Positions 23,011 through 61,887 of a stretch of DNA of 64,000 nucleotides are shown here, in pieces; the stretch's first letter is position 1; each line of letters opens with the position of its first letter. A program made the position numbers and the translations under genes. The notes beneath the pieces were generated by a model, which had not been told where the DNA came from, did not search any database, and saw nothing but the letters and a program-made list of their open reading frames with translations. Location: IMG/VR virus record IMGVR_UViG_3300044949_001245, positions 24,604-88,603 of that record. One strand, 5' to 3'. The DNA is from a virus.

Positions 23011-23439
23011 TCAATTTTGTTTATCTAATAACTGTCGCTTGAACTTATTTATGTGCTTGTTGATGAAAGTTATTTCGATGTCGTCATCAGATGAATGATG
23101 AATGAAAATGCGCCATGATTTCATTTTCACTATCATTTCATTTTCACCGCCTGAACTATCTGGTATTGAGTACGTTTCAGATGATTTTGATGAGTAAATG
23201 AAATTGACTACATCCATGAAACACTCTACATCATCTTGCTCCGAAAATGAAAAAGTGACTAAACTGTTAACATCAGTGTTCAACAATTCAGCCACTCTAG
23301 TGTAATGTTCTACTTCCGTATTGGTCAGACTAAATTCACTTACTGCTTTGTAACGTAAACTTCTGTTGTTTGCGGACTGAACACACTCCGTTGCTTTCCC
23401 TCTCCAATTTTCATCTTCCAATACTTCTGGAACTCGCAT
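23011..23439 (-). CDS. Hypothetical protein with an unusually long overlap with its upstream gene
   Basis: A 142-residue protein of unknown function. The only ATG upstream of its conserved-looking core lies 100 bases inside the end of the kinase-family gene; a GTG two codons earlier is also possible. The first 35 residues are therefore read in a different frame across the neighbour's C-terminus. Either the overlap is real or translation begins at an undetected non-ATG codon nearer the neighbour's stop. The C-terminal part has a Ser/Asp-rich strand region and a basic helix. Confidence 0.55.
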   Translation of the reverse strand: MRVPEVLEDENWRGKATECVQSANNRSLRYKAVSEFSLTNTEVEHYTRVAELLNTDVNSLVTFSFSEQDDVECFMDVVNFIYSSKSSETYSIPDSSGGENEMIVKMKSWRIFIHHSSDDDIEITFINKHINKFKRQLLDKQN

Positions 23440-24380
23440 AGCCACATTTCTATTTGGTGTAATGTAATTTTACCCTCTTTTGGTGTAACTATTTTATATT
23501 TGTTATTTTCTTTATCCCAATCCAAGTATTTGAAATCACCTATCTCAGCAAGTTTAGCCTTGGCCATGTCACGCAACATGTAAATTCCTTTTATCTGTTC
23601 GCCCTTACTTAATGACGGAAAAATTAACCGAATGCCGATGGAAGCACCTGGTCCAACATTCGTAAAATCATCTTGGTCAAACTTCATCAGTTGTATTCCT
23701 GAATATCTTGGCGCATATGTAAAGTCCTGATAAAATTCATGAGCAATAAAATCAGCAACTGCCGGCAATGTTTTCAAATAGCTTATTAACTCCTTTGGCT
23801 CTTTTGCGCTCAATAGCAGTTTGTTTATTTTTGGGATAGCAGAATGTATTGACGGAACAACTACTTGCGTGTAGCACCAATCTCTTTTCGCACCAGGACA
23901 AGCCTGTGAATTTATCAGATACGCATTTGTATAAGGATTGTTTCCAGTTTCTCTGTATCCGTATATCAACTCAGCCCACTCACCCTTATCGTACTGGTCA
24001 TAGCTTGGAAACATACCATCAAAAGATTTTTTCTGGCTACCTATCCACTCAAATGTTTCAGGGCAGTTAAATATCCTAAAAAGCATGATTTTCCAAACCA
24101 AGTCCTTTCGACTATTTGGCTCCATCAAAACGTGCTTTATTTGCCACTGCGAATGTCTGTCCAGTTCCCGAAAAACATTTGTGAATTTATGATTGGACAT
24201 AAATGGGTCTTGGCTCCATGGTCTTGATTCATTCTTTACAAATCTGCGGTGCCATATTTCTTGTCGCTCAAACATGGTTTGAAAAAATAAACCTAGATTT
24301 TCATCATCCACTTCCTTGTCCGATGATGGTAGGGCATTCCCCCAAGACTTCATACCATAAGCTGTTCTAAATTCTTCCAT
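23340..24380 (-). CDS. 5-hydroxymethyl-dU DNA kinase family protein (HMUDK_hel)
   Basis: A 346-residue protein matching the 5-hmdU DNA kinase helical family, formerly called alpha-glutamyl/putrescinyl thymine pyrophosphorylase. Diagnostic stretches are FERQEIWHRR (37-46), PWSQDP (54-59), FTNVFRELDR (66-75), HSQWQIKH, MLFRIFN (99-105), LPAVADFIAHEF and DDFTNVGPGAS (237-247). Characterised members phosphorylate 5-hydroxymethyluracil in DNA, the first step towards amino-acid or polyamine thymidine hypermodification. It sits far from the nucleotide genes, among virion genes between the glucosaminidase and portal. The thymidylate-synthase homologue at 61 kb may supply the substrate. Family is confident; activity in this phage is inferred. 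Confidence 0.8.
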   Translation of the reverse strand: MEEFRTAYGMKSWGNALPSSDKEVDDENLGLFFQTMFERQEIWHRRFVKNESRPWSQDPFMSNHKFTNVFRELDRHSQWQIKHVLMEPNSRKDLVWKIMLFRIFNCPETFEWIGSQKKSFDGMFPSYDQYDKGEWAELIYGYRETGNNPYTNAYLINSQACPGAKRDWCYTQVVVPSIHSAIPKINKLLLSAKEPKELISYLKTLPAVADFIAHEFYQDFTYAPRYSGIQLMKFDQDDFTNVGPGASIGIRLIFPSLSKGEQIKGIYMLRDMAKAKLAEIGDFKYLDWDKENNKYKIVTPKEGKITLHQIEMWLCEFQKYWKMKIGEGKQRSVFSPQTTEVYVTKQ

Positions 24381-24858
24381 TGATGATTTTTTTTAATTTC
24401 TCCACATAAACTTTGTCAGAGGCATATACAGATTGTAGCTTTCCGAAATACTCATCTTGAGTCAACCCTTTGGCGTACCTACATTGCCAAATAAGATAGT
24501 CCATCATACATTCTTTCCAGCTAGTATAAATCGCATAGCCATCTTTCTTACCAATAGCTGTAGTTGGTCTTTGAGCAGCCAATCTCATCCCGACTAAATT
24601 GTTGTTGTTTTTAGCAACAGATGATTTCAAGTTTCCGCTTTCTAGCATAACCTGAGCTACAACTACCTCTGGGTGCTCAAACTTACAACGCTTTACAAAC
24701 TTTTCTACATTCTCTATCGTCAAGGTGTCTTCATCGCAAGTGATGTTGAGTTCATAACTTACATTTTGCTTTACTGTCTTTCTCAACTTTAGCGAAACGC
24801 CAAGCGCAACAACAGCAAGTATCAAGGCTGTGATGCTAGTTACATTTTTGAAATTCAT
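24367..24858 (-). CDS. Membrane-anchored glucosaminidase-type peptidoglycan hydrolase
   Basis: A 163-residue protein. Residues 7-24 are a hydrophobic N-terminal anchor or uncleaved signal. Residues 60-160 match the glucosaminidase/FlgJ-Bax fold: VVVAQVMLESGN with a probable catalytic Glu, NNNLVGMR, DGYAIYTSWKECMMDYL and a closing YASDKVYVEKLKKII. It cleaves peptidoglycan glycan strands. A second wall-degrading enzyme besides the amidase suggests a role in virion entry or in finishing lysis from the periplasm. It overlaps the next gene by 14 bases. Confidence 0.75.
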   Translation of the reverse strand: MNFKNVTSITALILAVVALGVSLKLRKTVKQNVSYELNITCDEDTLTIENVEKFVKRCKFEHPEVVVAQVMLESGNLKSSVAKNNNNLVGMRLAAQRPTTAIGKKDGYAIYTSWKECMMDYLIWQCRYAKGLTQDEYFGKLQSVYASDKVYVEKLKKIINGRI

Positions 24859-26691: not shown

Positions 26692-27636
26692 TTAATTAAC
26701 TGTACTAGTCATAGCATAAACAGCCATATCTCGCCAATCCTCTCCATTCTCTGGGTCAACTCGCATACTAATGACTTTTATCAAAGTCCTAAAATTCAAG
26801 TCACCACAACTTTTATGATATTCCTCTATCAAATCAAGACATTCCTCTTTCTCTTCAATCGACACATCTGGTCTGATGTGTCCTAGTATTGCCCTCATCC
26901 TTTCAATTTTAACAGGATTGGTCATCGTCAAATCAATACTCATTGACCTAGATAGAATTGCTTGGTCAATTTTCTCTTGCGGTAAATTGCTGATGAAGAT
27001 TATTCGCCCCTCAAATACAAAATCAGATGGCAAATCAGGCAACTCTTTACTAGTTATCCAATGTATTCTGCGCTCATCGTATGAGTCCAGAGCACCTTTC
27101 AATAAATTTTTTGCCGTTGGGTCTTTCAAAACTTCATCGCAATCATCAAAAACAATCAGCTTGTCTGAATTTTCATAAAGTGTTCTATACAATCCACGTG
27201 GCGTTGAGTACCCTTTGACGATGATGAAATCATAGTCCTCAACTAATTGCTTTTTGAGAATTTCTTGTTTTACAGTGTAGGATTTTCCCAAACCGCCCTC
27301 GCCAGTGATTATCATAGACACGGCTGTCTTCTTGATTACCATTTTAATCATGTTCTCAAGAAATCTAAACTTGTCATTGATGTTGAATTGACTTGGTGGC
27401 GTCAAAGGAACAACTTGCTCTCCGATGTCAGTTGTTGTTTGATTGCCTACCACTTGAATATCATCTGGAGAAACAAATTTGATTTTGTTCATTTGTCGGT
27501 CAAACTTCCGACCATCCGCTGTTTCAATGGTGTGATATCCGTTTCTGCCAGCCTTGACATATTTTCCGAATAAAACTTCACCATCCCTTGACCTGATTGA
27601 TACAGGTGTTCCTGCTTTAATAGCAATGTCCATCAT
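26692..27636 (-). CDS. AAA+ ATPase with N-terminal SH3/Tudor-like domain
   Basis: A 314-residue ATPase. Residues 8-55 form a small beta-barrel-like domain (GTPVSIRSRDGEVLFGKYV). The AAA+ core has Walker A GEGGLGKS (about 111-118), Walker B LIVFDDCDEVL and sensor-1-like IIFISNLP, with a SRSMSIDL arginine-finger-like segment. The core is paralogous to the head-block AAA+ protein, which has the same FDD-x-DEVL box but a different N-terminus. It is compact and probably acts as a DNA or protein remodeller. Its partner is unknown. Confidence 0.75.
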   Translation of the reverse strand: MMDIAIKAGTPVSIRSRDGEVLFGKYVKAGRNGYHTIETADGRKFDRQMNKIKFVSPDDIQVVGNQTTTDIGEQVVPLTPPSQFNINDKFRFLENMIKMVIKKTAVSMIITGEGGLGKSYTVKQEILKKQLVEDYDFIIVKGYSTPRGLYRTLYENSDKLIVFDDCDEVLKDPTAKNLLKGALDSYDERRIHWITSKELPDLPSDFVFEGRIIFISNLPQEKIDQAILSRSMSIDLTMTNPVKIERMRAILGHIRPDVSIEEKEECLDLIEEYHKSCGDLNFRTLIKVISMRVDPENGEDWRDMAVYAMTSTVN

Positions 27637-28978: not shown

Positions 28979-29785
28979 TTAAAATTTCAAAGCCAACATT
29001 TGGTCTGGCGTCAACTCATACGTTTTGTTCTCTTGGATGTGATTTTCGTACAATTCCAGAGTCAAAATTTCAGCACAGTTATCAATCCAATCGTGAACCA
29101 GTCTGTTGTATTTTGCGTTGGTATCTGCTTCCTCTTGACTATTACAAGGTTGACAATCAGAGCCTGACTCTCCACAGATTGTTGCTTTGCCCTCGCCAGT
29201 CTGGTTTGAGTAATAAGTTTGGTTCCAGTTAAACAACTTGTATGGCACCTTAACACGTTCCTTTACTCCGTACAAATATGGCTTTTCTGTCGGCATGGTT
29301 GTGAAGTGTTCCTGACACTCCGAAATTTGTTTTTCAATACCCATGTTCTCTTTTTCAATTCTGTTTTTTTCATCCATCACTTTCATGATGATGTCTTTTC
29401 CAGATTTTGAAAATTTGAAAGCATTCGTTCCGTATGAAAACGCATCAGTCACATGAGACTTCTCCAAAACGTAAACATGCTTGAAAGAACCAAGTCCATC
29501 AGCCACCTTTACTTTCGCCATCTGGCTCATAGTTTCTTTAGCCTTTAGAACAAGGTCATTTGCTTCTTGTGTGTCGTTGAAACCGCCTTTGACGATGGTT
29601 CCACCAACAGTGTCGTTCACTTTCTTAATGTAGGCTTCAATAGAACTTTTTTCAAAAACCAAATATGCCTCAGATGGATATTTCTTTTGAAAATCCTTCA
29701 TCGTCATTCCCTTTTCGATATTGGTAAAACCAGACAAATTTATTTTGCCGTCAAAGTCCTCTGCTGTTAGAAATTCTTTTGTCAT
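28979..29785 (-). CDS. Hypothetical 268-residue protein
   Basis: The ATG at 29785 is preferred because earlier in-frame starts lie inside the terminator of the upstream unit. The protein is mixed, with a Met/Lys-rich helix in the middle and a Cys pair (CGESGSDCQPC) near residue 210. No family was recognised. It begins a new unit after the terminator, although no host-type promoter was found in the 46-base gap. Confidence 0.65.
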   Translation of the reverse strand: MTKEFLTAEDFDGKINLSGFTNIEKGMTMKDFQKKYPSEAYLVFEKSSIEAYIKKVNDTVGGTIVKGGFNDTQEANDLVLKAKETMSQMAKVKVADGLGSFKHVYVLEKSHVTDAFSYGTNAFKFSKSGKDIIMKVMDEKNRIEKENMGIEKQISECQEHFTTMPTEKPYLYGVKERVKVPYKLFNWNQTYYSNQTGEGKATICGESGSDCQPCNSQEEADTNAKYNRLVHDWIDNCAEILTLELYENHIQENKTYELTPDQMLALKF

Positions 29786-29830
29786 ATTTTCTAAATGTTT
29801 TTGCTTTATCAAGTAATAGCTGTTAATCAT

Positions 29831-29864
29831 AAAAAAGATAGGGTGACCTTTCAGCCACCCTATC
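29831..29864 (-). terminator. Rho-independent terminator
   Basis: GATAGGGTG and CACCCTATC pair perfectly (9 base pairs) around a 10-base loop and are followed by six T residues on the minus strand. It ends the unit containing the DUF2786 gene. Confidence 0.9.
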
Positions 29865-29899
29865 ACCGCAGAATTGATTGAAACTAAAATGTTCCAAGC

Positions 29900-30631
29900 T
29901 CAGTTGAGCATCTTTCTAGTAACTGGTTTTGAAGTTCCTGTTACCGCTTTATTTATTGTCACGCTTTTGCCAGTTTCCTTTCCTGAACTATATGCGCCAC
30001 CCGCACTTGAATAGTTAGTTTTACGACCAGTTCCGCTACCACCCCAAGTCATAGTGACGTAATCGGAAATCACCACCTCATTCGTTCTGATAATAGCTGT
30101 AGAACTCTCATTAGCTTTTTCAAACTCTTCACGCTCTGATTTGAATTTTGAATAAAGCCCATCCGCACAACCTTTCAAGAAAGTTCTCATAAAGGTATCT
30201 TGACCGACCGCAGTTGGATTATGTCTAGCATATTCCTTGTACTTTTCCTTTCCGACCTTTAGGAACACAGGCATCACAACTGTGTGAATGTATTTACATA
30301 CTTCGATGTTATCTGGACTGCCTACAATAATCATTTTGTTTTCGCTAGCATTCCCCATCGTGTAAGCCTTACACCAATTAAACTTGGCTACAACGCTCAT
30401 TACGTCAAAACTACTCCGACCTCCAATTCCAGGCACTTTCAGAGGCATCGTGTCGTGTATTATTTCAGCACGCACTTCATCCTCCGTCAAATCTGCTTTA
30501 CTCAGATTGTATTCGTTGAGCAACTGTTGTACCTTTCTGGCGTAAATTTCTGCCTCTGCTATTGAGCCCATTGCTCTAGCTGACTCCGCATGAGCCAATA
30601 CTTTTCTGATTTTGTCAATTACTTTTTCCAT
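29900..30631 (-). CDS. DUF2786-family protein
   Basis: A 243-residue protein. The N-terminus IDKIRKVLAHAESARA, then EAEIYARKVQQLLNEYNL, is the DUF2786 signature. The centre has a hydrophobic core with FNWCKAYTM, and the C-terminus is Ser/Thr/Gly-rich and probably disordered (residues 190-243). The family is common in phages and mobile elements, but its biochemical function is not established. It is followed by a strong terminator. Confidence 0.75.
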   Translation of the reverse strand: MEKVIDKIRKVLAHAESARAMGSIAEAEIYARKVQQLLNEYNLSKADLTEDEVRAEIIHDTMPLKVPGIGGRSSFDVMSVVAKFNWCKAYTMGNASENKMIIVGSPDNIEVCKYIHTVVMPVFLKVGKEKYKEYARHNPTAVGQDTFMRTFLKGCADGLYSKFKSEREEFEKANESSTAIIRTNEVVISDYVTMTWGGSGTGRKTNYSSAGGAYSSGKETGKSVTINKAVTGTSKPVTRKMLN

Positions 30632-30635
30632 GTTC

Positions 30636-30854
30636 TTAATTTTTTACAGTTTCATAATTACCCTCTGGATTGAAGTTCTTCATCCATAAAGACACGATGC
30701 GTCTTGCCTCACCTTTATTGAGTCCGAACTCATCCTCAACATATGGTGCTGCTCCGAACATATTAGTCACTCCTGACTCTCTCAAGTCATTCAAATACTC
30801 ACAAACATTTTTTTCTAGTTCTGTGGTTGGTCTTGTTTCTTGTGTTGTTTCCAT
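30636..30854 (-). CDS. Small hypothetical protein
   Basis: A 72-residue acidic protein with helices and an NMFGAAPYVEDEFG segment. It ends with the same TVKN stop context as its upstream neighbour (ACTGTAAAAAATTAA), so the leader of each next gene is a near-repeat. Confidence 0.6.
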   Translation of the reverse strand: METTQETRPTTELEKNVCEYLNDLRESGVTNMFGAAPYVEDEFGLNKGEARRIVSLWMKNFNPEGNYETVKN

Positions 30855-30857
30855 CTT

Positions 30858-31115
30858 TTAATTTTTTACAGTTAAATAAAAATACAAATAATCATAACGC
30901 TGAATAAAGTGGGTCAGCTGTTCCCTTAACTCTTGCGGTGTTTTTTCCGATGTTACCCATAGGCTAAAAATCCTTGCTCTGTTGTCCCAATGCTTCTCAT
31001 AGTGTTGGAACGCTGACTTATCAAACCTCTTGATAACTCTGAAGGCAGCATCTATGGTGTTCCCCGAAATCATCCCAAAGTTGCTCTTGAATTCTATGTG
31101 CATTCTTCTACTCAT
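30858..31115 (-). CDS. Small hypothetical protein
   Basis: An 85-residue basic protein (MSRRMHIEFKS) with an aromatic C-terminal strand (YDYLYFYLTVKN). It is coupled to the upstream small gene by a 4-base overlap. No family is recognised. Confidence 0.6.
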   Translation of the reverse strand: MSRRMHIEFKSNFGMISGNTIDAAFRVIKRFDKSAFQHYEKHWDNRARIFSLWVTSEKTPQELREQLTHFIQRYDYLYFYLTVKN

Positions 31116-31327
31116 AACACCGCCCTCCTTACTGAATACCCATTACTACTGTAATCATCCATTACTACTCTGTAGCCATATATCACACTGCCTACAAGTT
31201 CCCCTAGATAGTCCACCCAACTGATTACATCCTCAGCGTGAGCTTTACTGTTCCACTTGGACCAGTCCTGTCTTGCCATTTGATACCACTCTTGGGCATC
31301 TTTTGCGATTTTTTTCTTGGTTGCCAT
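31112..31327 (-). CDS. Small hypothetical protein, first gene of the 31.4-kb promoter unit
   Basis: A 71-residue protein from the ATG at 31327; an in-frame TTG lies further up in the conserved leader. It is Lys-rich at the N-terminus and has a hydrophobic GELVGSVIYGYRVV segment. It follows a Bacteroidota-type promoter and leader shared with two other units. Confidence 0.6.
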   Translation of the reverse strand: MATKKKIAKDAQEWYQMARQDWSKWNSKAHAEDVISWVDYLGELVGSVIYGYRVVMDDYSSNGYSVRRAVL

Positions 31328-31341
31328 TTGTCGTTTTTTTA

Positions 31342-31395
31342 AGTTTAACAATCAATTCTGAAGTAAAGGTATGTAAAAATTTACAAACGACAAAA
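31342..31395 (-). promoter_or_regulatory. Bacteroidota vegetative promoter with conserved leader, copy 2
   Basis: The sequence is TTTTG, 19 bases, TACCTTTA (-33 at 31391-31393, -7 at 31364-31371). The transcribed leader is nearly identical to those at 26.4 and 40.9 kb. It should drive the three small genes and DUF2786 gene to the terminator at 29.85 kb. Confidence 0.8.
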
Positions 31396-31399
31396 TTTT

Positions 31400-31633
31400 T
31401 TAACAATTTTCTTTGAAAAATTTTGAGTTGGGCTGGTGCGAATTTATGAAATCCTCCAGTTTTTTCTGGGAAATCTCCAGTGTTTTTATGTGATTTTCAA
31501 GTTCCTTTTCGACCTCTTCCAGCCTTTCTTTCAGCTCAATAGCCTTTCTCATAGCATTTTCAACATTGCTTTCAGCTATAATTTTGGTCAATTTTAGCTT
31601 TTGATATAGTTCCTCTCCATGAGATAGCTTCAT
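31400..31633 (-). CDS. Small coiled-coil protein
   Basis: A 77-residue protein, almost entirely a charged coiled coil (about residues 15-65, IELKERLEEVEKELENH). No other feature is present. It follows the terminase gene and may be a small assembly factor or regulator. Confidence 0.6.
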   Translation of the reverse strand: MKLSHGEELYQKLKLTKIIAESNVENAMRKAIELKERLEEVEKELENHIKTLEISQKKLEDFINSHQPNSKFFKENC

Positions 31634-31658
31634 GAACTAATTAACTATGAAATACTTA

Positions 31659-33341
31659 CTAAAGAAATTTGAACTTGAATCCAGTGGTGACTTTTTTCGC
31701 TGCTATTGATGTAAGCCATAACGCCATAGCTTGGTCATCGTGTTCTCCGACACCCTCCAATCCTTTATCAGTCCATGTAACAGATGAAAGTTCCATAGCA
31801 AGTGAATCAGAAATGTCTATTGACTCCTGATTGCCTCTTGGTATCCGTATTTTGCCACGCTCAAACAAAATTGCTAGTCCAGGCAATCCTGCCTTTAGGT
31901 CATATTTGTTGCTTCCTGTCGTATGACCCTCGACAGGCAATCCAGCCCTCTCTGACTCTTGTACAAAAATCTGTTGGAATACGTTATTCTCCATTACCAT
32001 TATATCAGGCTGAAACGATGCGTTGATTTGTTTTATGACTGCTAGTTGTTCAGCAAAAGACTTGCCCCGAAATCTAGTAACATTCATCAACCACATATTC
32101 TCATTCTCATCTACTCCAGCGGTGATGATGACTGTGTAGTCAGCCCCAACTGAGCTGGAAATCGAAAAGTCAATACCAGTCACCACCCTATCGAATTTCA
32201 TTTTGTAAGCTGTTCTAGCACGTACAAATGTGTAGTCCTCCATCCTCACATATGCCCTTTCAATTACATCTTGAGGGAAAATTGATGACTCATTGGTAAC
32301 TGGCCTACATAAATTTTCCCTTGAAAAGATTATGTTGCCCTGTGTTGACCTCTTTTCCATCAACTCCTTAAATCCCCAACGCTCACGCCATAGTATGACT
32401 CCATTCGGAAATATGGCTGGATATTCCCTCACGTGCCACCCCTCCTTGCTTTTCAAATCTCCATATAGGTCATTAGCGTGGAATGGAGTTCCAACCACTA
32501 TAACTTGACCTTTGGGCACAATCATATTCATGATTACAGCGTGAAAATAATCTATGGACTTTTTTCTTTGAACCGAACTGTAAATCACGTTGTCCTTTAA
32601 TCCATCATCAACCACAATATATCCAGGGTGAGCACCACGTACTGATGAACCAAAGCCTTTGGTTGTTATCCTTGCTCCGTTTTTACAAACTATATCAGTT
32701 TTTGCCCATCCATCGTTCCGACCTGGAAATAATCTTTCACGCAAATCATCATTTTCTTCAATCGTGCTTTTCAAAATATCCAAAAGGTCAACCGCCTGTT
32801 GTAATGAAAATGAAAATAGAAATCCACGCTTGGATAATGCTAAATCATGGCGTGGTCTGGAGAACCCTGTGACTGGCTGGTATCGGTATAACTTCCAAGC
32901 CAGATACGCATTACTCCAATAGAATGATTTTCCGTGGTCACGTGCGGCAATTACGTTGAGTTTGTTGTAACGCATCGCCATATCTCCCCATTCCAGATGG
33001 TGCCAGTTCATTTCAAACTGCGGCATTTTACTCAAAATGAAATAGGTCAGATTTTCAATACACAAAGTTTCCTCTATGGTCTTTGTGAGTGTATCGAAAT
33101 AGCCTAGTTTGAGCTGTAGTTGGTTTTGCTTTCCGTAAATTACATTGAAAACCTCTTCCAAGATTATGGAATAAATCTCATCCACATCCTTTTCGTAACC
33201 TCCAAACAACTCCTTGGTGCCGGCATCATCCAAGTTGTTGATAATCTCATCCACAATACGAAATGCCTCATCAATTTTTTCAAACGACAAGGCATTTTGG
33301 TATTTGGAAATGATTTTTAAGTCCTCTTGTGATATGTTCAT
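31659..33341 (-). CDS. terL: Terminase large subunit
   Basis: A 560-residue packaging motor. The ATPase half has a Walker A variant (AARDHGKSF), Walker B with the catalytic acidic pair (YIVVDDGLKD), and a coupling motif (IVVGTPFHANDLY). The nuclease half has RNase H-like acidic residues (GIDFSISSS, GADYTVI, and EHDDQAMALW near the C-terminus). It cuts concatemeric DNA and pumps it through the portal. Its start overlaps the stop of a candidate small subunit gene (ATGA). Confidence 0.93.
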   Translation of the reverse strand: MNISQEDLKIISKYQNALSFEKIDEAFRIVDEIINNLDDAGTKELFGGYEKDVDEIYSIILEEVFNVIYGKQNQLQLKLGYFDTLTKTIEETLCIENLTYFILSKMPQFEMNWHHLEWGDMAMRYNKLNVIAARDHGKSFYWSNAYLAWKLYRYQPVTGFSRPRHDLALSKRGFLFSFSLQQAVDLLDILKSTIEENDDLRERLFPGRNDGWAKTDIVCKNGARITTKGFGSSVRGAHPGYIVVDDGLKDNVIYSSVQRKKSIDYFHAVIMNMIVPKGQVIVVGTPFHANDLYGDLKSKEGWHVREYPAIFPNGVILWRERWGFKELMEKRSTQGNIIFSRENLCRPVTNESSIFPQDVIERAYVRMEDYTFVRARTAYKMKFDRVVTGIDFSISSSVGADYTVIITAGVDENENMWLMNVTRFRGKSFAEQLAVIKQINASFQPDIMVMENNVFQQIFVQESERAGLPVEGHTTGSNKYDLKAGLPGLAILFERGKIRIPRGNQESIDISDSLAMELSSVTWTDKGLEGVGEHDDQAMALWLTSIAAKKVTTGFKFKFL

Positions 33342-33892
33342 ACGCTGATAACCATTCGTTTTTTCATCGTTTCCAACTTGTCGATGTCTTTTTGATTGGT
33401 TAGAAATTTCTGATAATCAATCAACTTCCCCTTTATTACATCAAGGTGTAGTTGTATTTCACGTCTTTTGTTCGCCTTTATTTCACTTTGGTCCATGATG
33501 ACCTTTAATGCCTTTCTTTGCTCATCTTCCCAAGAAATGAACCCGAACATATCCAGCGTTGCGATTATGTTGTTAAACTTGCTCCAACTGAAGTTTGTCA
33601 TTTTCTTCATTTCGCTAATTTTAACAAATCCCTCGCTGAACTCTTGCTCCCAACGGATGAAGAACTGGCGGGCAATCTCTTTAGCCTGTGCCTTGTTCTG
33701 CTCATCCTCAAGAAATCCTACCACTACCTCATCGCTGACTTTGTCTGCTCGCCTTCCAGCTAGATAGGACATTTCATTGTTGTCCAATTCGTAAATTATG
33801 GCCTCAGGTGCTTTTTCTTGTAATGCTTCCATTACCGCCTTGGCCATTTCTGGGTCATTGCCCCCAATCATGATGTACTTTTTACTGTCCAT
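33338..33892 (-). CDS. Candidate terminase small subunit (winged-helix-like)
   Basis: A 184-residue protein translationally coupled to the large terminase. Residues about 100-145 (FVKISEMKKMTNFSWSKFN, then LDMFGFISW) look like a winged-helix DNA-binding unit, and the C-terminal 50 residues are a basic helical segment. Small terminases recognise packaging sites and usually lie next to the large subunit. The call is based on position and the DNA-binding-like region, since small terminases are poorly conserved. The protein at 41.9 kb is a competing candidate. Confidence 0.45.
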   Translation of the reverse strand: MDSKKYIMIGGNDPEMAKAVMEALQEKAPEAIIYELDNNEMSYLAGRRADKVSDEVVVGFLEDEQNKAQAKEIARQFFIRWEQEFSEGFVKISEMKKMTNFSWSKFNNIIATLDMFGFISWEDEQRKALKVIMDQSEIKANKRREIQLHLDVIKGKLIDYQKFLTNQKDIDKLETMKKRMVISV

Positions 33893-33895
33893 ATA

Positions 33896-35059: not shown

Positions 35060-35060
35060 T

Positions 35061-35570: not shown

Positions 35571-35572
35571 TT

Positions 35573-35791
35573 TCAAAAAACTTTTATTACATTAAATGGA
35601 TTCAGACAAAAACAATCGCCATCATCCTTGCGTATTAAATAGATGTCTTGTGGCGAAACAAATAGCACATCTCCATTTTTATCAAATACTCTGTCTGTTG
35701 ATTGTACTTTGTCTAACACTACACCTGTTCCCTCTACTCTTTCATTTTCAATGTAGTATGAAAATGCTATTTTCTTTCCGATGATGCTCAT
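35573..35791 (-). CDS. Small hypothetical protein
   Basis: A 72-residue protein resembling a small beta-barrel (IGKKIAFSYYIENERVEG, then VLDKVQSTDRVF). It overlaps the dUTPase end by 4 bases, so it is coupled to dut. No family is recognised. Confidence 0.6.
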   Translation of the reverse strand: MSIIGKKIAFSYYIENERVEGTGVVLDKVQSTDRVFDKNGDVLFVSPQDIYLIRKDDGDCFCLNPFNVIKVF

Positions 35792-36255
35792 ATGTTTGAT
35801 GTTTTAGTTTGTTGTTCCGTATTGGTATCAGTGCTTCCAAATCCACCCTCACCTCTTTCGCTTTCCTCTAGTTCTTCAACTTCCTCAAGCTCAATAAATG
35901 GTATCGGTTGGATGATTATTTGACCGACTTTCTCCCCTACCTTGTAGATGTCTTTACCATGTAGGTTTGCTCCTGTGACTTGAAAGCGCAAGCAAATTTC
36001 TCCCCTATATCCTGAGTCAATTACTCCTACGCAGTTTTTCAAAATCAAATCTTTTTTTGTTACTGAACTTCTTGCGTAAAGCAACCCAACATACCCCTCT
36101 GGAATTTCCATAGCCAGACCAGTGTGGTACTGAACGAACTTTCCGTTTGAGTCCATATGAATTTGGATAGCTGTTAAGTCCATGCCGGCATCGCCCTTTT
36201 TAGCATAGGTTGGTATCACCGCCCTATCATCTAGTTTTTTAATTTTTATTTTCAT
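35788..36255 (-). CDS. dut: Deoxyuridine 5'-triphosphate nucleotidohydrolase (dUTPase)
   Basis: A 155-residue trimeric-type dUTPase. The ATG at 36255 overlaps the upstream stop (ATGA) and gives a normal family length. Motif 1 is GDAGMDLTA, motif 2 is ARSSV, motif 3 is GVIDSGYRGEI, motif 4 is VGQIIIQPIP and motif 5 is ERGEGGFGST. It converts dUTP to dUMP. In a phage with a thymidylate-synthase homologue, the product could feed dTMP or hydroxymethyl-dUMP synthesis while keeping plain uracil out of DNA. All five motifs are intact. Confidence 0.93.
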   Translation of the reverse strand: MKIKIKKLDDRAVIPTYAKKGDAGMDLTAIQIHMDSNGKFVQYHTGLAMEIPEGYVGLLYARSSVTKKDLILKNCVGVIDSGYRGEICLRFQVTGANLHGKDIYKVGEKVGQIIIQPIPFIELEEVEELEESERGEGGFGSTDTNTEQQTKTSNI

Positions 36256-36527
36256 CTCAGATATTTTTTGTCTAACACTACCGCATTGCCTACAATACAA
36301 TCATTGAACCTCCGTGTCTTTTCATAGAACACTTGCGTGGCTATTTCATTGAGTGGTTTGTTCAACAATTTTCCCTCTTCATTAACCACCATTAGGGTGT
36401 TCTCATCAAGCCAAACTATTTCGATGTATCCATCGACAGCCTTTTGAAGAAATTCCAGTGATGCTTCTTTGTCGTCATTTTTTACGACCTCGACACTTCC
36501 GTCAGTTTTGATAATTTTTGCTTCCAT
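36252..36527 (-). CDS. Small hypothetical protein coupled to dut
   Basis: A 91-residue protein with a strand-rich first half and FYEKTRRFNDCIVGNAVV near the end. It is coupled to dUTPase by an ATGA overlap. The function is unknown. Confidence 0.6.
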   Translation of the reverse strand: MEAKIIKTDGSVEVVKNDDKEASLEFLQKAVDGYIEIVWLDENTLMVVNEEGKLLNKPLNEIATQVFYEKTRRFNDCIVGNAVVLDKKYLR

Positions 36528-36529
36528 TT

Positions 36530-37443: not shown

Positions 37444-37444
37444 A

Positions 37445-37849: not shown

Positions 37850-37858
37850 AATTTTAAT

Positions 37859-38107: not shown

Positions 38108-38112
38108 GACTC

Positions 38113-46396: not shown

Positions 46397-46417
46397 GAGA
46401 GTGTAGAAAATGACAAC

Positions 46418-56139: not shown

Positions 56140-56408
56140 TACTCAATTATTTCTTTGTTAATAGAATTTCCAGCAACTTCGTTATGCTCAATCATCCGCT
56201 GTAGATAGTCTTGAGCCTTTAATAAATCCGTCATGTTGTTCCCCTTACTTGAACCAGGTCTTGTAAACCTATCCAAATACCTCTTAACATTTTCGGCACA
56301 CCAGATGTCACCTCTTTCTTTGGACACCCTGTAATTGGTCGAAATTTGGTCATACTCTTTTGCTCCGTACTTCGACCTGTTTGATTGTTCTAGTTGTTTA
56401 ACGTCCAT
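56139..56408 (-). CDS. DUF3310-like small protein
   Basis: An 89-residue protein. The DIWCAENVKRYLDRFTR segment, then MTDLLKAQDYLQRMIEHNE, resembles the DUF3310 family of phage and mobile-element proteins (pattern GN-x-KY-x-R-x-x-K, leDLkKA-x-YL). It has been linked by annotation to nucleotide metabolism; no function is proven to my knowledge. It overlaps the HD gene by 11 bases. Confidence 0.5.
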   Translation of the reverse strand: MDVKQLEQSNRSKYGAKEYDQISTNYRVSKERGDIWCAENVKRYLDRFTRPGSSKGNNMTDLLKAQDYLQRMIEHNEVAGNSINKEIIE

Positions 56409-57033
56409 ATTTTGCGAAATTTAGTTTTTTGATATCATTCAATACTTTATCCTTAAACTCTGGATAATTGGTCTTCATCGTGGCCAAGCAATTACAGGCT
56501 GACTCCTTCACTTTGAAGGAACAATAATCATATTCTACAAATAGATTTTGGTTCCCCAATCGTATTTCTTTCTGAACGTAATACGACATGGACAGCCAGT
56601 CAGCCAATTTAACTATTGTTTTTGTAACTTCACTAACATCGCCCAACAAATTTTTTCTCAACATCAGATTGGTTGGAGTATTTTCCTTGAACTTCTCCCT
56701 AGTCATATTGTCGCAAAATTCATCAATCAATTTCTTTATTTTTTCTCCGTTAAATTCATTGTACTTAACAGTGTGACCTATATCACCCGAAAACATTTCA
56801 TCAAAGTCATGAAATAAGGCATACGTCACGACCTCCAATTTAAGGTGGTCATCATTGCTCTCCAATAGTTCCTCCACTAGTATTCTTGAGAACCAAGATA
56901 CAATAAAGGAATGGTGGGCAACAGACTCATTATTTATGCGCCCTAGTCCGTTCCATCGAATTAAATTATTGAGTTGGTCAAAGTCTGGGTCAGTGAATAT
57001 CCTGTCGAATATATTTTCCATATTATTTATCAT
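56398..57033 (-). CDS. HD-domain 5'-deoxynucleotidase (YfbR-like)
   Basis: A 211-residue HD phosphohydrolase. Motifs are RWNGLGRINNESVAHHSF (first His), ALFHDFDEMFSGDIGHTV (His-Asp) and KLADWLSM (later Asp). The pattern fits YfbR-type 5'-deoxynucleotidases, which dephosphorylate dNMPs. In phages that replace a standard base, such enzymes help drain the unwanted nucleotide. It overlaps the polymerase stop; the second Met, directly after that stop, is an alternative start. Confidence 0.75.
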   Translation of the reverse strand: MINNMENIFDRIFTDPDFDQLNNLIRWNGLGRINNESVAHHSFIVSWFSRILVEELLESNDDHLKLEVVTYALFHDFDEMFSGDIGHTVKYNEFNGEKIKKLIDEFCDNMTREKFKENTPTNLMLRKNLLGDVSEVTKTIVKLADWLSMSYYVQKEIRLGNQNLFVEYDYCSFKVKESACNCLATMKTNYPEFKDKVLNDIKKLNFAKYGR

Positions 57034-60000
57034 TTAATGCTATTAACTTTGATTGCTTCGTGAGCCAAAGGTGATTATTGCCTGAACCTTTAGCATGCTT
57101 ACTTTTCTGATACTTGTTAGAAAGTGCGTATCCATTTACAGCAAACAGTAATTTCTTTTCACTTAAATGCTCAAAATCTTCACTAATGGTTTCCCAAAGG
57201 TCACCAAACACTCCTATAAATATCAATACATTATTGCTCTCAACTGTTATCACAACCCTGTAGTTTCCGTTTGCTTTAGTTCTGTAAACCTTTATTCCGT
57301 GGACTGACCCAGCTATGGTAAATGGCTTTCCATTCAACTCAGGTTTCCAAGGCTTTCCCTCTTTGAAGTCCATAGTTTCAAAATCCTTTGCAGTCACATA
57401 TGGGTACTTCTTCAGTTTGTTATCCTTTTTTCGTATCATCGGCAAAAAATCAACAAAACCAAACCCAGTCAACTCACGTTGCTTTATTGACCAAAACCAA
57501 TTACTATTCTCTACATCAGTATTGGGAAATCCCTCTATGTAATCACAATCGGTTATGGAGCAATGCTTTTTCAAAATATACATTCTCTGCTTAACTTCGG
57601 AAATCGGTGTGCCGGCATCGCCACCTATTTCATCAAATGCTCCCGCAATTATCAAGGCTTGAATTACTCTCTTATTCACCTTTGACTTTGGAACTCTTTT
57701 AATAAAATCTTCCAAATCAAAAAATTGTCCTCTCGCACTGCGTTCCTCTAGTATGTGCTGAACCGCAACTTGACCTACGTTTTTAATTTTAGTGAGTGAC
57801 CAGTATATTGAGTTGCTAGATGGGTCAGCGGTGAACTGAATATCCGACTTGTTGACATCAGGTTGTCGTACATTTATTCCTGAACCTATCTTTTCAATCT
57901 CAGAAAGTCTGTTTGGTATCTCAACTTTTTCATCAGCAAAGTTCAATGACGCTGTCCAAAACTCTAATGGATACATCACTTTCAAATACTGACACCAATA
58001 TCCCATAAGTGAGTAAGCAGCAGAGTGTGACCTGTTAAATCCATAGGCTGAGAACGCATTTAGCTTGTCCCAGATTGCCTCCGCTTCAGATTTTGGACAA
58101 CCATTTTCCATAGCACCATTCAAAAACTTTTCTTTAGCACTATTCATTTTCGCATGGTCGAACTTCTTTATTGCCGTTCTCAATTCATCCGCTTCAGCCA
58201 ATGTCAATTTACCTAGAACATTAACAGCTTGCATGATTTGCTCTTGGTAAATATACAATCCAAACGTATTTTCAGTCACGACCTCTAATTTGTAGTCATA
58301 CGCTGGTTCCAATTTACCATGTTTAATCTCAACAAATTTCTCGTGAGCCTTACTATCCATTGGACCAGGTCTGAATAACGCATTCATAGAAATCAAATCT
58401 TCAATTCCATCTGGTCGTACCTTTTTTGAGTAATTCTTCAATCCTGATGTTCCGAACTGAAACACATCCTCATTCCAACCCCTCTTAAAATACTTCATCA
58501 CTTCAGGCTTGTCCATGGGTATCTTATTCAGGTTCACTCTCTTTTCTTTGTTCTTGCGTATCTCGCTGAGAATGTACTTGAACTTATCAAGTTGGGCAAT
58601 CCCTAAAATATCCTCCTTTAGAAATCCAGCGGCATCAATGTATTTTCCCTCCCATTCAGATACAAGTTGACCATCCATCAACTTAACAGGCATCCAATCG
58701 TGTATTTTCATCGGCTTTCCGTTTGAATCCGTTTTTGGAACTATCAGAACAGCTGATGGGTGAATGGAGCCAGACCTTGGCTGACCCATCGGTGCCTTTA
58801 TCACTTCGCAAATATCTACATTACTTTGAACGAATTTTTTCAAACTTTGCTTCACTATCGCATAGCTGAAAATCTCTTTCCAATCAGGGTCATGTGAGTC
58901 TTCCAAATCCCTTGTAGCATCATTAACTTCCTGAAATGTCAATCCTTTTACTCTTGAGAAATCCTTTATGGCACTTTTTGGTTTCAACCTCGTGTACGTT
59001 CCGATGGAACAAACATAATCAAATCCATATTTCTCTTCAATGTAACGCTTCACATCTTGTCTTCTTGCGCCTTCAAAGTCCACATCTATATCGGGCAACG
59101 CATCGGCTGACTTCGCACGTTCCCCAGACACCCTAGCTTTATTCAAAAATCTCTCAAAAAGCAGCTTGTATTGGATTGGGTCAATCTCCGTTATTCCTAG
59201 TAAATAAGCAACCAAAGAACCGCCAGCAGAACCCCTAGCTGGCCCAACTAGAATGTCTTGCGACTTGGCCCACTCTATGATATCCCAAAGTATCAAAAAG
59301 TAATGAATAAATCCAGCCCCCTTTATTACACTATTTTCTTCATCCACTCTATCCAAATACTCAACTATCTTTGATTCATCGGCAAACTTGCTCAAAACTT
59401 TTTTCTTGAACCCGATGGCAATTAAATCATCATACAATTTCTCTGGGTCATCAACTTCAAATTTTGGCAACTTGTGGTTACCAGTATCCACTTGGTAGGT
59501 ACAAGCATCAGCGATGATTTTTGTATTCTCTGCGCCCTTCAATATCAAGTCAAACAATTTAGGATTTTTCTCAAAGTGTGGAACGAACTTATCAAAAAAA
59601 TCATCCACATCTTTGTAATACTGTTCTACGCTATATGGATGAGCTTTCCTATCTACTTTGTTCAAATACTCTTTCACTTTGTAATCGAACTTTTCAACAT
59701 AGTAAGTATCACTGATTAGAACAGGCTTCAAAAGTTTAGAAAAGTCATTCAAGTATGTGCCGATGTTCTTCAATATCTTCAAGTCATAACCATCATCGTC
59801 ATATTCCGAACAATCTATTTGATAAAATAAATCTTCACCAAAACATCTTTTATACTTTTTAATGTACTTCAAGGCTGATGCTTTATCAGAAATCAATCGG
59901 TTGAAATACCCCTCTGTTGCGAATACACAAATCAATCCCTCTGTTCTTTCCAATAGCATTTCCTCTGGGATGAACCCCGCATAATCGACATTGACTAGCT

Positions 60001-60637
60001 TTGAAATGTTCAATAAATTCCTCCAACCGACTTCATCCTTGACGTACAGTTTCAAATCAAACAAATTTTGATTTTCTGAGCTGGCGTCATAGTCTATGGC
60101 TATGGAAATCGTAACTCCGTGTACACACCTCAATCCACCTTTCTTACAAGCCATCTGTAGCGGCAATGTTCCAGCAAGTGTATTTTTCTCACAAATGCCT
60201 ACCGCCCCATGTCTCATAAACTTCGCCTTTTGAACCCACTTCGATGGCTCACCACTTCCGTTCAATAATTCGTACCCAGTGTGAACTCCTAGATTGACAA
60301 ACCCTATGGATTCAAATTTTGATTGATACTCTCCTAGATTGACTAAATCATTGAATACAGGCTCATAAACCACATCACCTTGCTCATCCCTCTTTTCCTC
60401 CAACGTGGAATAATAAAATTTTGTACCCCACTTAAAAACCACATGATTCAAATCATCATCTTGGTATAGCAAATCATCTTCTTCATCCGTGAGTAAGAAC
60501 TCAAAATTTTCTCCTATCAACTTTCCATCAACCCCCTCTATGTAAAGCAACCGACCAAAAGATGGAATGTTTACAATATGCCCGGCAAATTTGTAAATCA
60601 GCCCTCTAGCATCTAACCATTCTTTTAATTCATTCAT
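57023..60637 (-). CDS. dnaE: DNA polymerase III alpha subunit (C-family replicase)
   Basis: A 1204-residue polymerase. The N-terminus (about 110-180) is PHP-like, but the normal HxH is lost: VNLGVHTGYELLNG instead of HxHxEYSLLDG. The polymerase core contains GPARGSAGGSLVAYLLG (about 464-480), PDIDVDF (about 515-521), RRQDVKRYIEEKYG and a tHHH/OB-like C-terminus with HGIKVYRTKANG. A stand-alone DnaQ-like exonuclease elsewhere may proofread. Its start overlaps the stop of the thymidylate-synthase-like gene by 4 bases, joining replication to nucleotide supply. Confidence 0.93.
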   Translation of the reverse strand: MNELKEWLDARGLIYKFAGHIVNIPSFGRLLYIEGVDGKLIGENFEFLLTDEEDDLLYQDDDLNHVVFKWGTKFYYSTLEEKRDEQGDVVYEPVFNDLVNLGEYQSKFESIGFVNLGVHTGYELLNGSGEPSKWVQKAKFMRHGAVGICEKNTLAGTLPLQMACKKGGLRCVHGVTISIAIDYDASSENQNLFDLKLYVKDEVGWRNLLNISKLVNVDYAGFIPEEMLLERTEGLICVFATEGYFNRLISDKASALKYIKKYKRCFGEDLFYQIDCSEYDDDGYDLKILKNIGTYLNDFSKLLKPVLISDTYYVEKFDYKVKEYLNKVDRKAHPYSVEQYYKDVDDFFDKFVPHFEKNPKLFDLILKGAENTKIIADACTYQVDTGNHKLPKFEVDDPEKLYDDLIAIGFKKKVLSKFADESKIVEYLDRVDEENSVIKGAGFIHYFLILWDIIEWAKSQDILVGPARGSAGGSLVAYLLGITEIDPIQYKLLFERFLNKARVSGERAKSADALPDIDVDFEGARRQDVKRYIEEKYGFDYVCSIGTYTRLKPKSAIKDFSRVKGLTFQEVNDATRDLEDSHDPDWKEIFSYAIVKQSLKKFVQSNVDICEVIKAPMGQPRSGSIHPSAVLIVPKTDSNGKPMKIHDWMPVKLMDGQLVSEWEGKYIDAAGFLKEDILGIAQLDKFKYILSEIRKNKEKRVNLNKIPMDKPEVMKYFKRGWNEDVFQFGTSGLKNYSKKVRPDGIEDLISMNALFRPGPMDSKAHEKFVEIKHGKLEPAYDYKLEVVTENTFGLYIYQEQIMQAVNVLGKLTLAEADELRTAIKKFDHAKMNSAKEKFLNGAMENGCPKSEAEAIWDKLNAFSAYGFNRSHSAAYSLMGYWCQYLKVMYPLEFWTASLNFADEKVEIPNRLSEIEKIGSGINVRQPDVNKSDIQFTADPSSNSIYWSLTKIKNVGQVAVQHILEERSARGQFFDLEDFIKRVPKSKVNKRVIQALIIAGAFDEIGGDAGTPISEVKQRMYILKKHCSITDCDYIEGFPNTDVENSNWFWSIKQRELTGFGFVDFLPMIRKKDNKLKKYPYVTAKDFETMDFKEGKPWKPELNGKPFTIAGSVHGIKVYRTKANGNYRVVITVESNNVLIFIGVFGDLWETISEDFEHLSEKKLLFAVNGYALSNKYQKSKHAKGSGNNHLWLTKQSKLIALNDK

Positions 60638-61887
60638 AACTTTCCTATTGGTGACAAATACTCATTCCTTAACTCTGGACTTTTTATCCTAGCCACAAAG
60701 AAATTCGCAGCCAAAGCTAAAATATCCAGCGATGGATAGTATTGCCCCAAATCAGACAGCTCTTTAGTTTTTTGATACCTAAACTCATCTTTGGGGATGA
60801 TGCGTTTTTCATCATCATTTAACAATTCTTTGTAGTGGGTGTAAACTTCCAAGATATCATAAACCAAAGCCAAGTATTTTGAAAACTCAGTCAGCTCAGC
60901 GAAATCAGCATTACTCATCCTCTCCCCAGACTTGAGTGTGTTGATGATTAACTCCAGATATGAGTCAACCTCATGAAGCCTTGCTTCGATATTTTCCGAA
61001 CTGAATTTCATATCCATCCTAGCTGGAAAATAGTTATCATACAGGTCAGGCAACTCTGCTCCATTAGCAAACTGCGTGTGTTCATACATTCTCATAGCTA
61101 TGTCGTTGTCTGTATAGAAATGAAGACTTTGAGAATTATGAGTTTGAGTACCTAGTTGTATATCTAGTATGTTAGCCATTATCTCAGTTATGAAACTGAA
61201 CTGAAATACGTTTGTAGGCAACCCCCAATGTAAGTCATTACTCCTATTCGCTATGGTAGTGTGTAACTTCCCATTACGAATTTTCAAGAACACCATATCA
61301 TTACAAGGTATGTCTTTACTGTTCTTTGCTAAATCTAAATCAACATTCCAAATAGACATCACCGCACGTCTGTCGAAATGATTATTTTTTAACATCTTCA
61401 GGCACTCCAATACTTGGTCTGTTCCCTCCGACATCTGTTGTAAATAGTGTCCGTGATGCTCTGGTTGTACTATATCTAGTTTGAGCTCAAGTTGTAAACT
61501 TTTTTTGAAAGACTCAAAGTTGTAATTTGAATCCACTCCATAATGTCTCAATCGAAATCCGTATGGAGCATGAAAAACTTTTCCGTTGTCAGAAAATTCA
61601 CGCATCCTTTCGTTAAACATAGATAAAAATTCAACATCACGCTCACCTTTGAAAATCCAAATGGCTTCAGCCAACAAAAAGAAAATGTTAATATCACGAC
61701 CACAACCGCCCACGCAACGATGATATGGACTAGTCAATGTGGTCTTGAAATTTAGAATTTCTTTTGTGTGTCCATACCTACTATCAACTGACTCTCCGTT
61801 CTCAATAAGATATTTGTTTATCAAAGGATAAACCCCCGAAAATGCTTTGGTGACTACGCTGTCATTCACAATTAAATCTTTTCTCAT
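60634..61887 (-). CDS. Thymidylate synthase family enzyme, candidate dUMP hydroxymethyltransferase
   Basis: A 417-residue member of the thymidylate synthase fold. Key segments are DRRAVMSIWNV (phosphate-binding Arg173/174), DIPCN with catalytic Cys195, RSNDLHWGLPTN with Arg215, Asp218 and Asn226, and LHFYTDN with His256/Tyr258. Asn226, aligned to the Asn that distinguishes uracil from cytosine in the family, argues for dUMP as substrate. The usual PCH is PCN. It is about 100-150 residues longer than normal ThyA, mostly a C-terminal helical extension. With the 5-hmdU DNA kinase-family protein in this genome, hydroxymethylation of dUMP is a reasonable inference, but ordinary dTMP synthesis cannot be excluded. 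Confidence 0.75.
   Translation of the reverse strand: MRKDLIVNDSVVTKAFSGVYPLINKYLIENGESVDSRYGHTKEILNFKTTLTSPYHRCVGGCGRDINIFFLLAEAIWIFKGERDVEFLSMFNERMREFSDNGKVFHAPYGFRLRHYGVDSNYNFESFKKSLQLELKLDIVQPEHHGHYLQQMSEGTDQVLECLKMLKNNHFDRRAVMSIWNVDLDLAKNSKDIPCNDMVFLKIRNGKLHTTIANRSNDLHWGLPTNVFQFSFITEIMANILDIQLGTQTHNSQSLHFYTDNDIAMRMYEHTQFANGAELPDLYDNYFPARMDMKFSSENIEARLHEVDSYLELIINTLKSGERMSNADFAELTEFSKYLALVYDILEVYTHYKELLNDDEKRIIPKDEFRYQKTKELSDLGQYYPSLDILALAANFFVARIKSPELRNEYLSPIGKL

What the first reader, a model, noticed from the sequence alone, without database searches (positions are those of the whole stretch)
23340..61887. Thymidine hypermodification gene set in a Bacteroidota phage
Seen: a 5-hmdU DNA kinase-family protein (23.3-24.4 kb), a thymidylate-synthase homologue keeping the uracil-selecting Asn (60.6-61.9 kb), a full-motif dUTPase and an HD deoxynucleotidase. 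Known: in SPO1-, SP10- and ViI-like phages hydroxymethyl-dUMP is made by a thymidylate synthase homologue, and DNA hmdU is then phosphorylated and replaced by amino acid or polyamine groups. Inferred: this phage has thymidines modified after replication. No second-step transferase was found in the window; the missing genes may lie outside. The kinase-family gene is placed in the virion block, which is unusual.
Basis: partly seen in the sequence, partly recalled or inferred. Interest (0 to 1): 0.8.

Follow-up and report, generated by a model that had tools for sequence, protein, structure and literature searches.

The report
Thymidine-modifying phage lacking its kinase
This virus of Bacteroidota-type bacteria carries the enzyme that makes an unusual DNA letter (5-hydroxymethyluracil) and a conserved protein that handles that letter in DNA, but its essentially complete genome lacks the kinase and transferases that normally decorate it further, which suggests that the handling protein has a role of its own.

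Summary
The genes are there, but the reading needs correcting. The thymidylate-synthase homologue (60634-61887) falls outside ThyA and carries the sequence signature of dUMP hydroxymethylases (SPO1 gp29 type), so 5-hydroxymethyl-dU is the likely precursor. The 23340-24380 protein is a strong HMUDK_hel (PF18723) member that keeps every strictly invariant residue of the family. It has no P-loop: it is the helical half of 5-hmdU DNA kinase, not a kinase. The record is a circularly permuted genome missing only about 72 bp. The absence of P-loop kinase, ADDT transferase, TAGT glycosyltransferase and radical SAM is therefore real at profile sensitivity, and "missing genes outside" is refuted. The gene is one of about 48 IMG/VR homologues, nearly always just upstream of the portal. 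All ten records of at least 86 kb with it also encode a hydroxymethylase-type TS; none of six control Bacteroidota phages does. In relatives its partner varies: P-loop kinase (with or without ADDT), TAGT glycosyltransferase (overlapping gene in G002, independently in Brevibacterium phage LuckyBarnes), or nothing recognisable. Best reading: a 5hmdU-DNA base-flipping module of HhH-glycosylase/ADDT-like fold, used by exchangeable tailoring enzymes, here retained without one. Virion DNA probably contains 5hmdU; a hypermodified base is not shown.

The parts
23340..24380 (-). HMUDK_hel (PF18723; aGPT-Pplase2 / 5-hmdU DNA kinase helical domain) protein, 346 aa, no P-loop
   Evidence: Pfam 173 bits; all strictly invariant family residues kept; AlphaFold pLDDT 87, top viral fold hit SP10 5-hmdU DNA kinase E 2.9e-15; ~48 IMG/VR relatives
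60634..61887 (-). dUMP hydroxymethylase-type thymidylate synthase homologue, 417 aa (C195 catalytic, N226 uracil-selecting)
   Evidence: PF00303 83.5 bits, PHROG 5131 E 3.9e-69; tree outside ThyA; signature D192, N196, N217, no Trp80 equivalent
35788..36300 (-). dUTPase
   Evidence: PHROG 135 E 4.7e-53; TIGR00576 above cut-off
56398..57033 (-). HD-domain YfbR-like 5'-deoxynucleotidase
   Evidence: PF12917 63.8 bits, PHROG 7076 E 3e-22
57023..60637 (-). DNA polymerase III alpha, in the same run of genes as the TS homologue
   Evidence: PF07733/PF17657, PHROG 405 E 3.4e-229
24367..24858 (-). Probable membrane-anchored glucosaminidase-like protein, overlapping the HMUDK_hel start; it sits where relative G002 has a TAGT glycosyltransferase
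   Evidence: one PF01832 match among members of A4 assigned to this ORF by its sequence; slot comparison
19968..21602 (-). Portal protein, downstream neighbour of HMUDK_hel in the whole clade
   Evidence: PF04860 and PHROG 12 among members of A1/A4, 51-79% identity in relatives
31659..33341 (-). Terminase large subunit; upstream border of the terminase-HMUDK_hel-portal block
   Evidence: tblastn to annotated terminase large subunits; 55-89% identity in relatives
26692..27636 (-). AAA ATPase between terminase and HMUDK_hel; a P-loop protein but not a 5-hmdU kinase
   Evidence: one PF00004 match, E 2.3e-4, among members of A4, assigned by its Walker A GEGGLGKS; no match to the kinase profile

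Best explanation
The phage makes 5-hydroxymethyl-dUMP with a thymidylate-synthase-type dUMP hydroxymethylase, keeps dUTP low with a dUTPase, and puts 5hmdU into its DNA (the synthase class is shown by sequence; incorporation is inferred). The HMUDK_hel protein P0002 is a functional 5hmdU-DNA-handling module of HhH-glycosylase/ADDT-like fold that probably binds duplex DNA and flips out 5hmdU. It is not a kinase. In related phages the same module is paired with exchangeable tailoring enzymes: a P-loop 5-hmdU kinase with or without ADDT, or a TAGT glycosyltransferase. In this phage lineage it is kept, with the hydroxymethylase, without any recognisable partner. So it either acts alone on 5hmdU DNA (binding, protection or marking) or serves a partner too divergent to be recognised. 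Shown: gene identities, conserved residues, near-complete genome, absence of known partners, partner exchange in relatives, portal linkage. Inferred: 5hmdU in the DNA, base flipping, action without a kinase.
For: TS homologue: best phage relatives by coverage and identity are the SPO1 gp29 group; ThyA is separated by a 100/100 branch, and holding this clade with the SPO1/M6 hydroxymethylases is not rejected (p-AU 0.27); L143D, H147N and C168N exchanges, loss of Trp80 and of the ThyA C-terminal tail, with Cys and uracil-selecting Asn kept. P0002: all residues identical in 12/12 outside HMUDK_hel proteins are identical in this clade too; fold like the SP10 5-hmdU DNA kinase (E 2.9e-15), with ADDT proteins next; in the PDB the highest-probability match is the PaMx11 5-PmdU glycinyltransferase (prob 0.89), with OGG1-type glycosylases among the rest, none significant by E-value. 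Linkage: 10/10 HMUDK_hel-bearing records of >=86 kb have hydroxymethylase-type TS; of 6 control Bacteroidota phages without HMUDK_hel, 2 have full-length ThyA and 4 no TS. Absences in a near-complete genome. Exchangeable partners.
Against: No chemistry has been measured. 12 of 13 HMUDK_hel phages outside this clade do carry a P-loop kinase-1 homologue, two of them only weakly, so a divergent kinase could have been missed. PDB fold matches are weak (best E 0.14, TM <0.5). The records compared are related, so co-occurrence counts are not independent. Inside the non-ThyA TS branch the join of this clade to the biochemically proven SPO1 enzyme is unresolved.
Confidence: 0.55

Rival explanations
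1. Full thymidine hypermodification: a kinase and transferase exist in the genome but are too divergent or non-homologous to be recognised.
For: HMUDK_hel keeps all invariant residues; relatives G018, G022, G023, G026 and G004 do encode P-loop kinases, two with ADDT; the clade's kinases are divergent (L069 scores only 39 bits against profile A5).
Against: A kinase profile extended with two divergent clade members still finds nothing in G000 (best E 0.39); Walker A proteins in G000 are accounted for as AAA ATPase, RecA, a virion-block protein and an endolysin; no ADDT, TAGT or radical SAM.
Confidence: 0.2
2. P0002 itself is a catalytic transferase or lyase on 5hmdU DNA (ADDT-like fold) and needs no kinase.
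For: Closest solved fold by probability is the PaMx11 5-PmdU glycinyltransferase; ADDT models match in BFVD at E 1e-6 to 7e-4; many polar invariants (R39, N68, R71, D74, R102, N105, D219, E316, K319, Y320).
Against: In SP10-type proteins the same domain is fused to a P-loop kinase domain (Goe26 636-aa protein; SP10 entry named 5-hmdU DNA kinase), pointing to an accessory or DNA-binding role; the fold match to the PDB is not significant by E-value.
Confidence: 0.12
3. P0002 has been recruited to packaging or the virion: it reads 5hmdU during DNA packaging, which is why it sits between terminase and portal.
For: Upstream of the portal on the same strand in all clade loci that show both genes.
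Against: Position may reflect only the ancestral place of a modification island: in G018 and G023 the same place holds kinase, ADDT and other tailoring genes. The 'terminase small subunit' labels on HMUDK_hel and kinase genes in Abidjanvirus-type phages and PHROG 800 look like mis-annotation.
Confidence: 0.1
4. P0002 is a relic of a lost pathway.
For: Kinase and transferases are absent; relative G004 has an in-frame stop in the GPG motif of its HMUDK_hel.
Against: Strong conservation (83% to G001; invariants kept in long records without kinase, ADDT or TAGT).
Confidence: 0.03

Closest known systems
Thymidine hypermodification pathways of Pseudomonas phage M6/PaMx11, Salmonella phage ViI, Bacillus phage SP10 and Delftia phage phiW-14
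   Same: Hydroxymethylase-type TS plus HMUDK_hel/aGPT-Pplase2 protein; same invariant residues and fold
   Different: No P-loop 5-hmdU kinase, no ADDT, no radical SAM or other recognised tailoring enzyme in a near-complete genome; the HMUDK_hel gene lies before the portal and about 37 kb from the TS gene instead of close to it
SPO1-type 5hmdU phages (SPO1 gp29 dUMP hydroxymethylase)
   Same: Same class of TS homologue (28% identity over 345 columns, NRSNDLHWG motif identical) and no 5-hmdU kinase
   Different: HMUDK_hel protein present; polymerase III replication; a Bacteroidota-type phage
Brevibacterium phage LuckyBarnes and relative G002: TAGT glycosyltransferase overlapping the HMUDK_hel gene
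   Same: TS homologue plus HMUDK_hel without P-loop kinase
   Different: They have TAGT glycosyltransferases immediately upstream; in G000 that place is taken by a glucosaminidase-like gene

Membership tests
dUMP 5-hydroxymethylase (SPO1 gp29 type) within the TS superfamily | Catalytic Cys and uracil-selecting Asn kept | tested here: met
   C195 and N226 align with E. coli C146 and N177
dUMP 5-hydroxymethylase (SPO1 gp29 type) within the TS superfamily | Groups away from ThyA and shares hydroxymethylase active-site exchanges | tested here: met
   ThyA branch 100/100, AU test does not reject grouping with SPO1/M6; L143D, H147N, C168N, Trp80 lost
dUMP 5-hydroxymethylase (SPO1 gp29 type) within the TS superfamily | Makes 5hmdUMP from dUMP | not testable with these tools
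   Needs enzyme assay
HMUDK_hel / aGPT-Pplase2 (PF18723) | Profile score above the curated cut-off, full-length match, invariant residues | tested here: met
   173.2 bits against 25, profile 5-279/281; invariants; fold
5-hmdU DNA kinase | P-loop kinase domain (fused or adjacent gene, motif INIRG-x-x-G-x-GK[ST]) | tested here: not met
   No Walker A in P0002; none in the genome by profile
Thymidine hypermodification system (M6/ViI/SP10/phiW-14) | Hydroxymethylase-type TS | tested here: met
Thymidine hypermodification system (M6/ViI/SP10/phiW-14) | Amino acid:DNA transferase ADDT (PF18724) | tested here: not met
   No match at E<=1 in G000
Thymidine hypermodification system (M6/ViI/SP10/phiW-14) | Radical SAM, PLP or FAD tailoring enzymes | tested here: not met
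   No PF04055 in G000; no PLP or FAD enzyme in Pfam scans of nearly all G000 proteins
Thymidine hypermodification system (M6/ViI/SP10/phiW-14) | Hypermodified thymidine in virion DNA | not testable with these tools
   Needs LC-MS of DNA from an isolate
TAGT glycosylated-hydroxymethylpyrimidine systems | TAGT glycosyltransferase (PF20691) | tested here: not met
   None in G000; present in G002, G006, G007, G009, G015 and LuckyBarnes

The most novel reading that the evidence does not exclude
HMUDK_hel is not a kinase subunit as such but a general 5hmdU-DNA base-flipping adaptor that lends substrate access to unrelated enzymes (P-loop kinase, ADDT pathway, TAGT glycosyltransferase), and in a widespread Bacteroidota phage clade it works alone on 5hmdU DNA, encoded next to the portal.
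Probability: 0.3. Interest if true: 0.75.

Novelty: new variant of a known kind. Interest (0 to 1): 0.55.

Why it matters
The name '5-hmdU DNA kinase, helical domain' is being propagated to genes that carry no kinase. This clade separates the domain from the kinase in near-complete genomes while all its invariant residues stay, so the domain's own function becomes testable. It also extends thymidine-type DNA modification to a widespread group of Bacteroidota-type phages and gives compact gene sets (kinase + GATase + ADDT + FkbM in G018; FAD oxidase + ADDT + kinase in G023; TAGT + HMUDK_hel in G002) that predict modified bases not yet described in such phages. The paper searches made here (limited to open-licence papers) found no description of them.

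Tried and rejected
Kinase hidden in a neighbouring gene: rejected; P-loop proteins in the genome are an AAA ATPase, RecA, a virion-block protein and an endolysin, and none matches the kinase profile. Truncated genome: rejected. Relatives of the TS protein in IMG/VR by peptide pattern: 7 pattern hits, none confirmed, a limit of that method; TS genes were found by whole-record profile search instead. Conserved unknowns next to TS as transferases: the 333-aa upstream protein is an acidic/lysine-rich low-complexity protein, the 371-aa and 295-aa ones show no enzyme motif by eye. PDB sequence search for P0002: nothing. The L166 389-aa gene looked glycosyltransferase-like by eye but was not confirmed by Pfam, NCBIfam or PDB sequence. 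Lee 2018, Lee 2021 and Iyer 2013 are not in the paper library. Similarity of the HD protein to the PaMx11 HD protein next to its TS: not detectable. A 5-hmdU-phage dNMP kinase homologue: none found.

Full report
WHAT WAS CHECKED. The window is bases 24604-88603 of an 88,603-bp virus record, G000. All four reported features are real. The 23340-24380 product (P0002) matches PF18723 HMUDK_hel at 173.2 bits over nearly its whole length. The 60634-61887 product (P0001) matches PF00303 at 83.5 bits. There is a full dUTPase (35788-36300) and an HD YfbR-like deoxynucleotidase (56398-57033). DNA polymerase III and terminase have their best phage matches in Chryseobacterium, Cellulophaga and Bacteroides phages, so 'Bacteroidota phage' is a fair inference; the host is not known.

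THE RECORD IS ESSENTIALLY COMPLETE. The first 211 bases and the last 153 bases of G000 encode the two ends of one protein that is a single 143-aa gene in the 83%-identity relative G001. Comparing the pieces, 24 residues (about 72 bp) are missing between them. G000 is therefore a circularly permuted genome with a tiny gap.

THE THYMIDYLATE SYNTHASE HOMOLOGUE. Its nearest phage relatives by coverage and identity are the SPO1 gp29 dUMP hydroxymethylase group. In a tree without the two longest branches, ThyA proteins (E. coli and four phages) are cut off by a 100/100 branch; P0001 and its seven clade mates lie on the other side with SPO1, M6-type and Ackermannviridae-type enzymes. Holding the clade with the SPO1/M6 group is not rejected (p-AU 0.27), though it is not positively resolved. 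Residue mapping gives C195 for C146, N226 for N177, E74 for E58, R215, S216, D218, H256 and Y258 kept, and the hydroxymethylase-type exchanges D192 (ThyA L143), N196 (H147) and N217 (C168). Trp80 and the ThyA C-terminal tail are lost. D192 and N217 are also shared by T4 dCMP hydroxymethylase. Production of 5hmdUMP is therefore well supported by sequence, not shown.

THE HMUDK_HEL PROTEIN IS NOT A KINASE. P0002 has no Walker A motif. In known systems the P-loop kinase is an adjacent gene (Stenotrophomonas phage Sonora, M6, PaMx11, PAKlein3) or an N-terminal fusion (Bacillus phage Goe26, 636 aa). Every position identical in all 12 outside HMUDK_hel proteins is also identical in the clade: R39, F66, N68, R71, D74, F211, D219, G243-P244-G245, G249, C315, E316, K319, Y320, G328. 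The main difference is Y214 to H, clade-wide. AlphaFold gives mean pLDDT 87.0 and pTM 0.84. In BFVD the top match is the SP10 5-hmdU DNA kinase (E 2.9e-15), followed by other HMUDK_hel proteins and then ADDT/Pplase1 proteins. In the PDB no match is significant by E-value; the one with the highest probability (0.89) is the PaMx11 gp46 5-PmdU glycinyltransferase, and most of the rest are OGG1-type glycosylases. The domain thus looks like a member of an HhH-glycosylase/ADDT-like group of base-flipping proteins (inference).

WHAT IS ABSENT. A profile of eight P-loop 5-hmdU kinases finds nothing in G000 (best E 0.77), while it recovers a divergent clade member it had not been built from at 4e-11. 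A profile extended with two clade members still finds nothing (best E 0.39), and the tool search agrees. ADDT, TAGT and radical SAM are also absent, and Pfam scans of nearly all G000 proteins show no other modification enzyme.

A WIDESPREAD CLADE WITH A FIXED POSITION. Two IMG/VR scans find about 48 homologues, most of them at 41-83% identity, plus one on a contig of a Sulfuricurvum MAG. In every locus that shows both genes, HMUDK_hel lies upstream of the portal on the same strand, within about 5 kb. All ten records of at least 86 kb (G000-G004, G012, G013, G016, G020, G021) encode a TS homologue that matches only the first ~214-219 positions of the profile, like P0001. Of six control Bacteroidota phages without HMUDK_hel, two have full-length ordinary ThyA (299 and 189 bits) and four have no TS. 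If the records were independent this split would be very unlikely by chance, but they are related, so no probability is claimed.

PARTNERS ARE EXCHANGED. Among about 22 clade records searched for each, five have a P-loop kinase (G004, G018, G022, G023, G026) and five a TAGT glycosyltransferase (G002, G006, G007, G009, G015). None has both, although many records are fragments. G018 has kinase, glutamine amidotransferase, ADDT and FkbM methyltransferase before HMUDK_hel and portal. G023 has kinase, FAD oxidoreductase and ADDT. In G002 the TAGT gene overlaps the start of HMUDK_hel; in G000, G001 and G003 the same place, after a conserved 80-85-aa gene, holds a glucosaminidase-like membrane protein. 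Independently, Brevibacterium phage LuckyBarnes has TS homologue, two TAGT genes and HMUDK_hel with no kinase. TAGT is linked to the second glucosylation of hydroxymethylcytosine in T6-like phages (PMC13390438). On the HMUDK_hel tree the partner label changes at least eight times where two would suffice (several forks are weak and long branches meet). So the domain is not tied to a kinase.

MECHANISM. Most likely 5hmdUMP is made, raised to the triphosphate by host or unrecognised kinases (no phage dNMP kinase homologue found) and put into DNA; P0002 then binds and flips 5hmdU in duplex DNA. In relatives that would present the base to a kinase or glycosyltransferase; in G000 the partner is lost or unrecognised. 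The final base is therefore most likely 5hmdU itself, with a hidden tailoring step as the main rival. Confidence: TS is a dUMP hydroxymethylase 0.85; 5hmdU in DNA 0.75; P0002 a 5hmdU-handling module independent of a kinase 0.5.

NOVELTY. The parts are known (dUMP hydroxymethylase, HMUDK_hel). The arrangement is a new variant: kinase-free HMUDK_hel with a hydroxymethylase in near-complete genomes, portal-linked in a wide phage clade, with kinase or TAGT as alternative partners in relatives. The primary papers (Lee 2018, Lee 2021, Iyer 2013) could not be read here, so whether parts of this were noted there is open.

Noticed in passing
L047 (G018) 1807-6960: Before the portal: P-loop kinase, class II glutamine amidotransferase, ADDT, FkbM-type methyltransferase, HMUDK_hel. 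A gene set not seen in the other phages examined here; it may predict a thymidine modification not yet described.
   Followed up: partly
L161 (G023) 4205-8978, kinase near L180: FAD oxidoreductase + ADDT + HMUDK_hel + P-loop kinase, resembling the PaMx11 set, in a phage with this clade's portal order.
   Followed up: partly
L133 7171-8992 (G002 10898-12720) and L063 4378-6840: TAGT glycosyltransferase gene overlapping the HMUDK_hel start in two unrelated phages.
   Followed up: yes
L012 / G004 7149-8132: HMUDK_hel has an in-frame stop exactly at the first G of the GPG motif, in a phage that also has a P-loop kinase next to RNase H; sequencing error, decay or recoding not decided.
   Followed up: no
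PHROG 800; PAKlein3 and Abidjanvirus-type records: P-loop kinase and HMUDK_hel genes are labelled 'terminase small subunit', probably a propagated mis-annotation.
   Followed up: partly
one protein within window 28979-46687: A Pfam match to pyrimidine dimer DNA glycosylase (PF03013, E 5e-5) among the proteins of alignment A2; the gene was not pinned down.
   Followed up: no
L166 4309-5475: 389-aa gene upstream of HMUDK_hel in G020 that looks like a GT4 glycosyltransferase by eye but has no profile support.
   Followed up: partly
L131 (DZBD01000005.1): A contig binned in a Sulfuricurvum MAG carries this clade's HMUDK_hel and portal; probably a phage contig, host assignment uncertain.
   Followed up: no
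PMC13092281 figure legend: A bacterial defence study lists TS, dNMP kinase and 5-hmdU DNA kinase domains among its systems: the same protein families occur on the host side.
   Followed up: no
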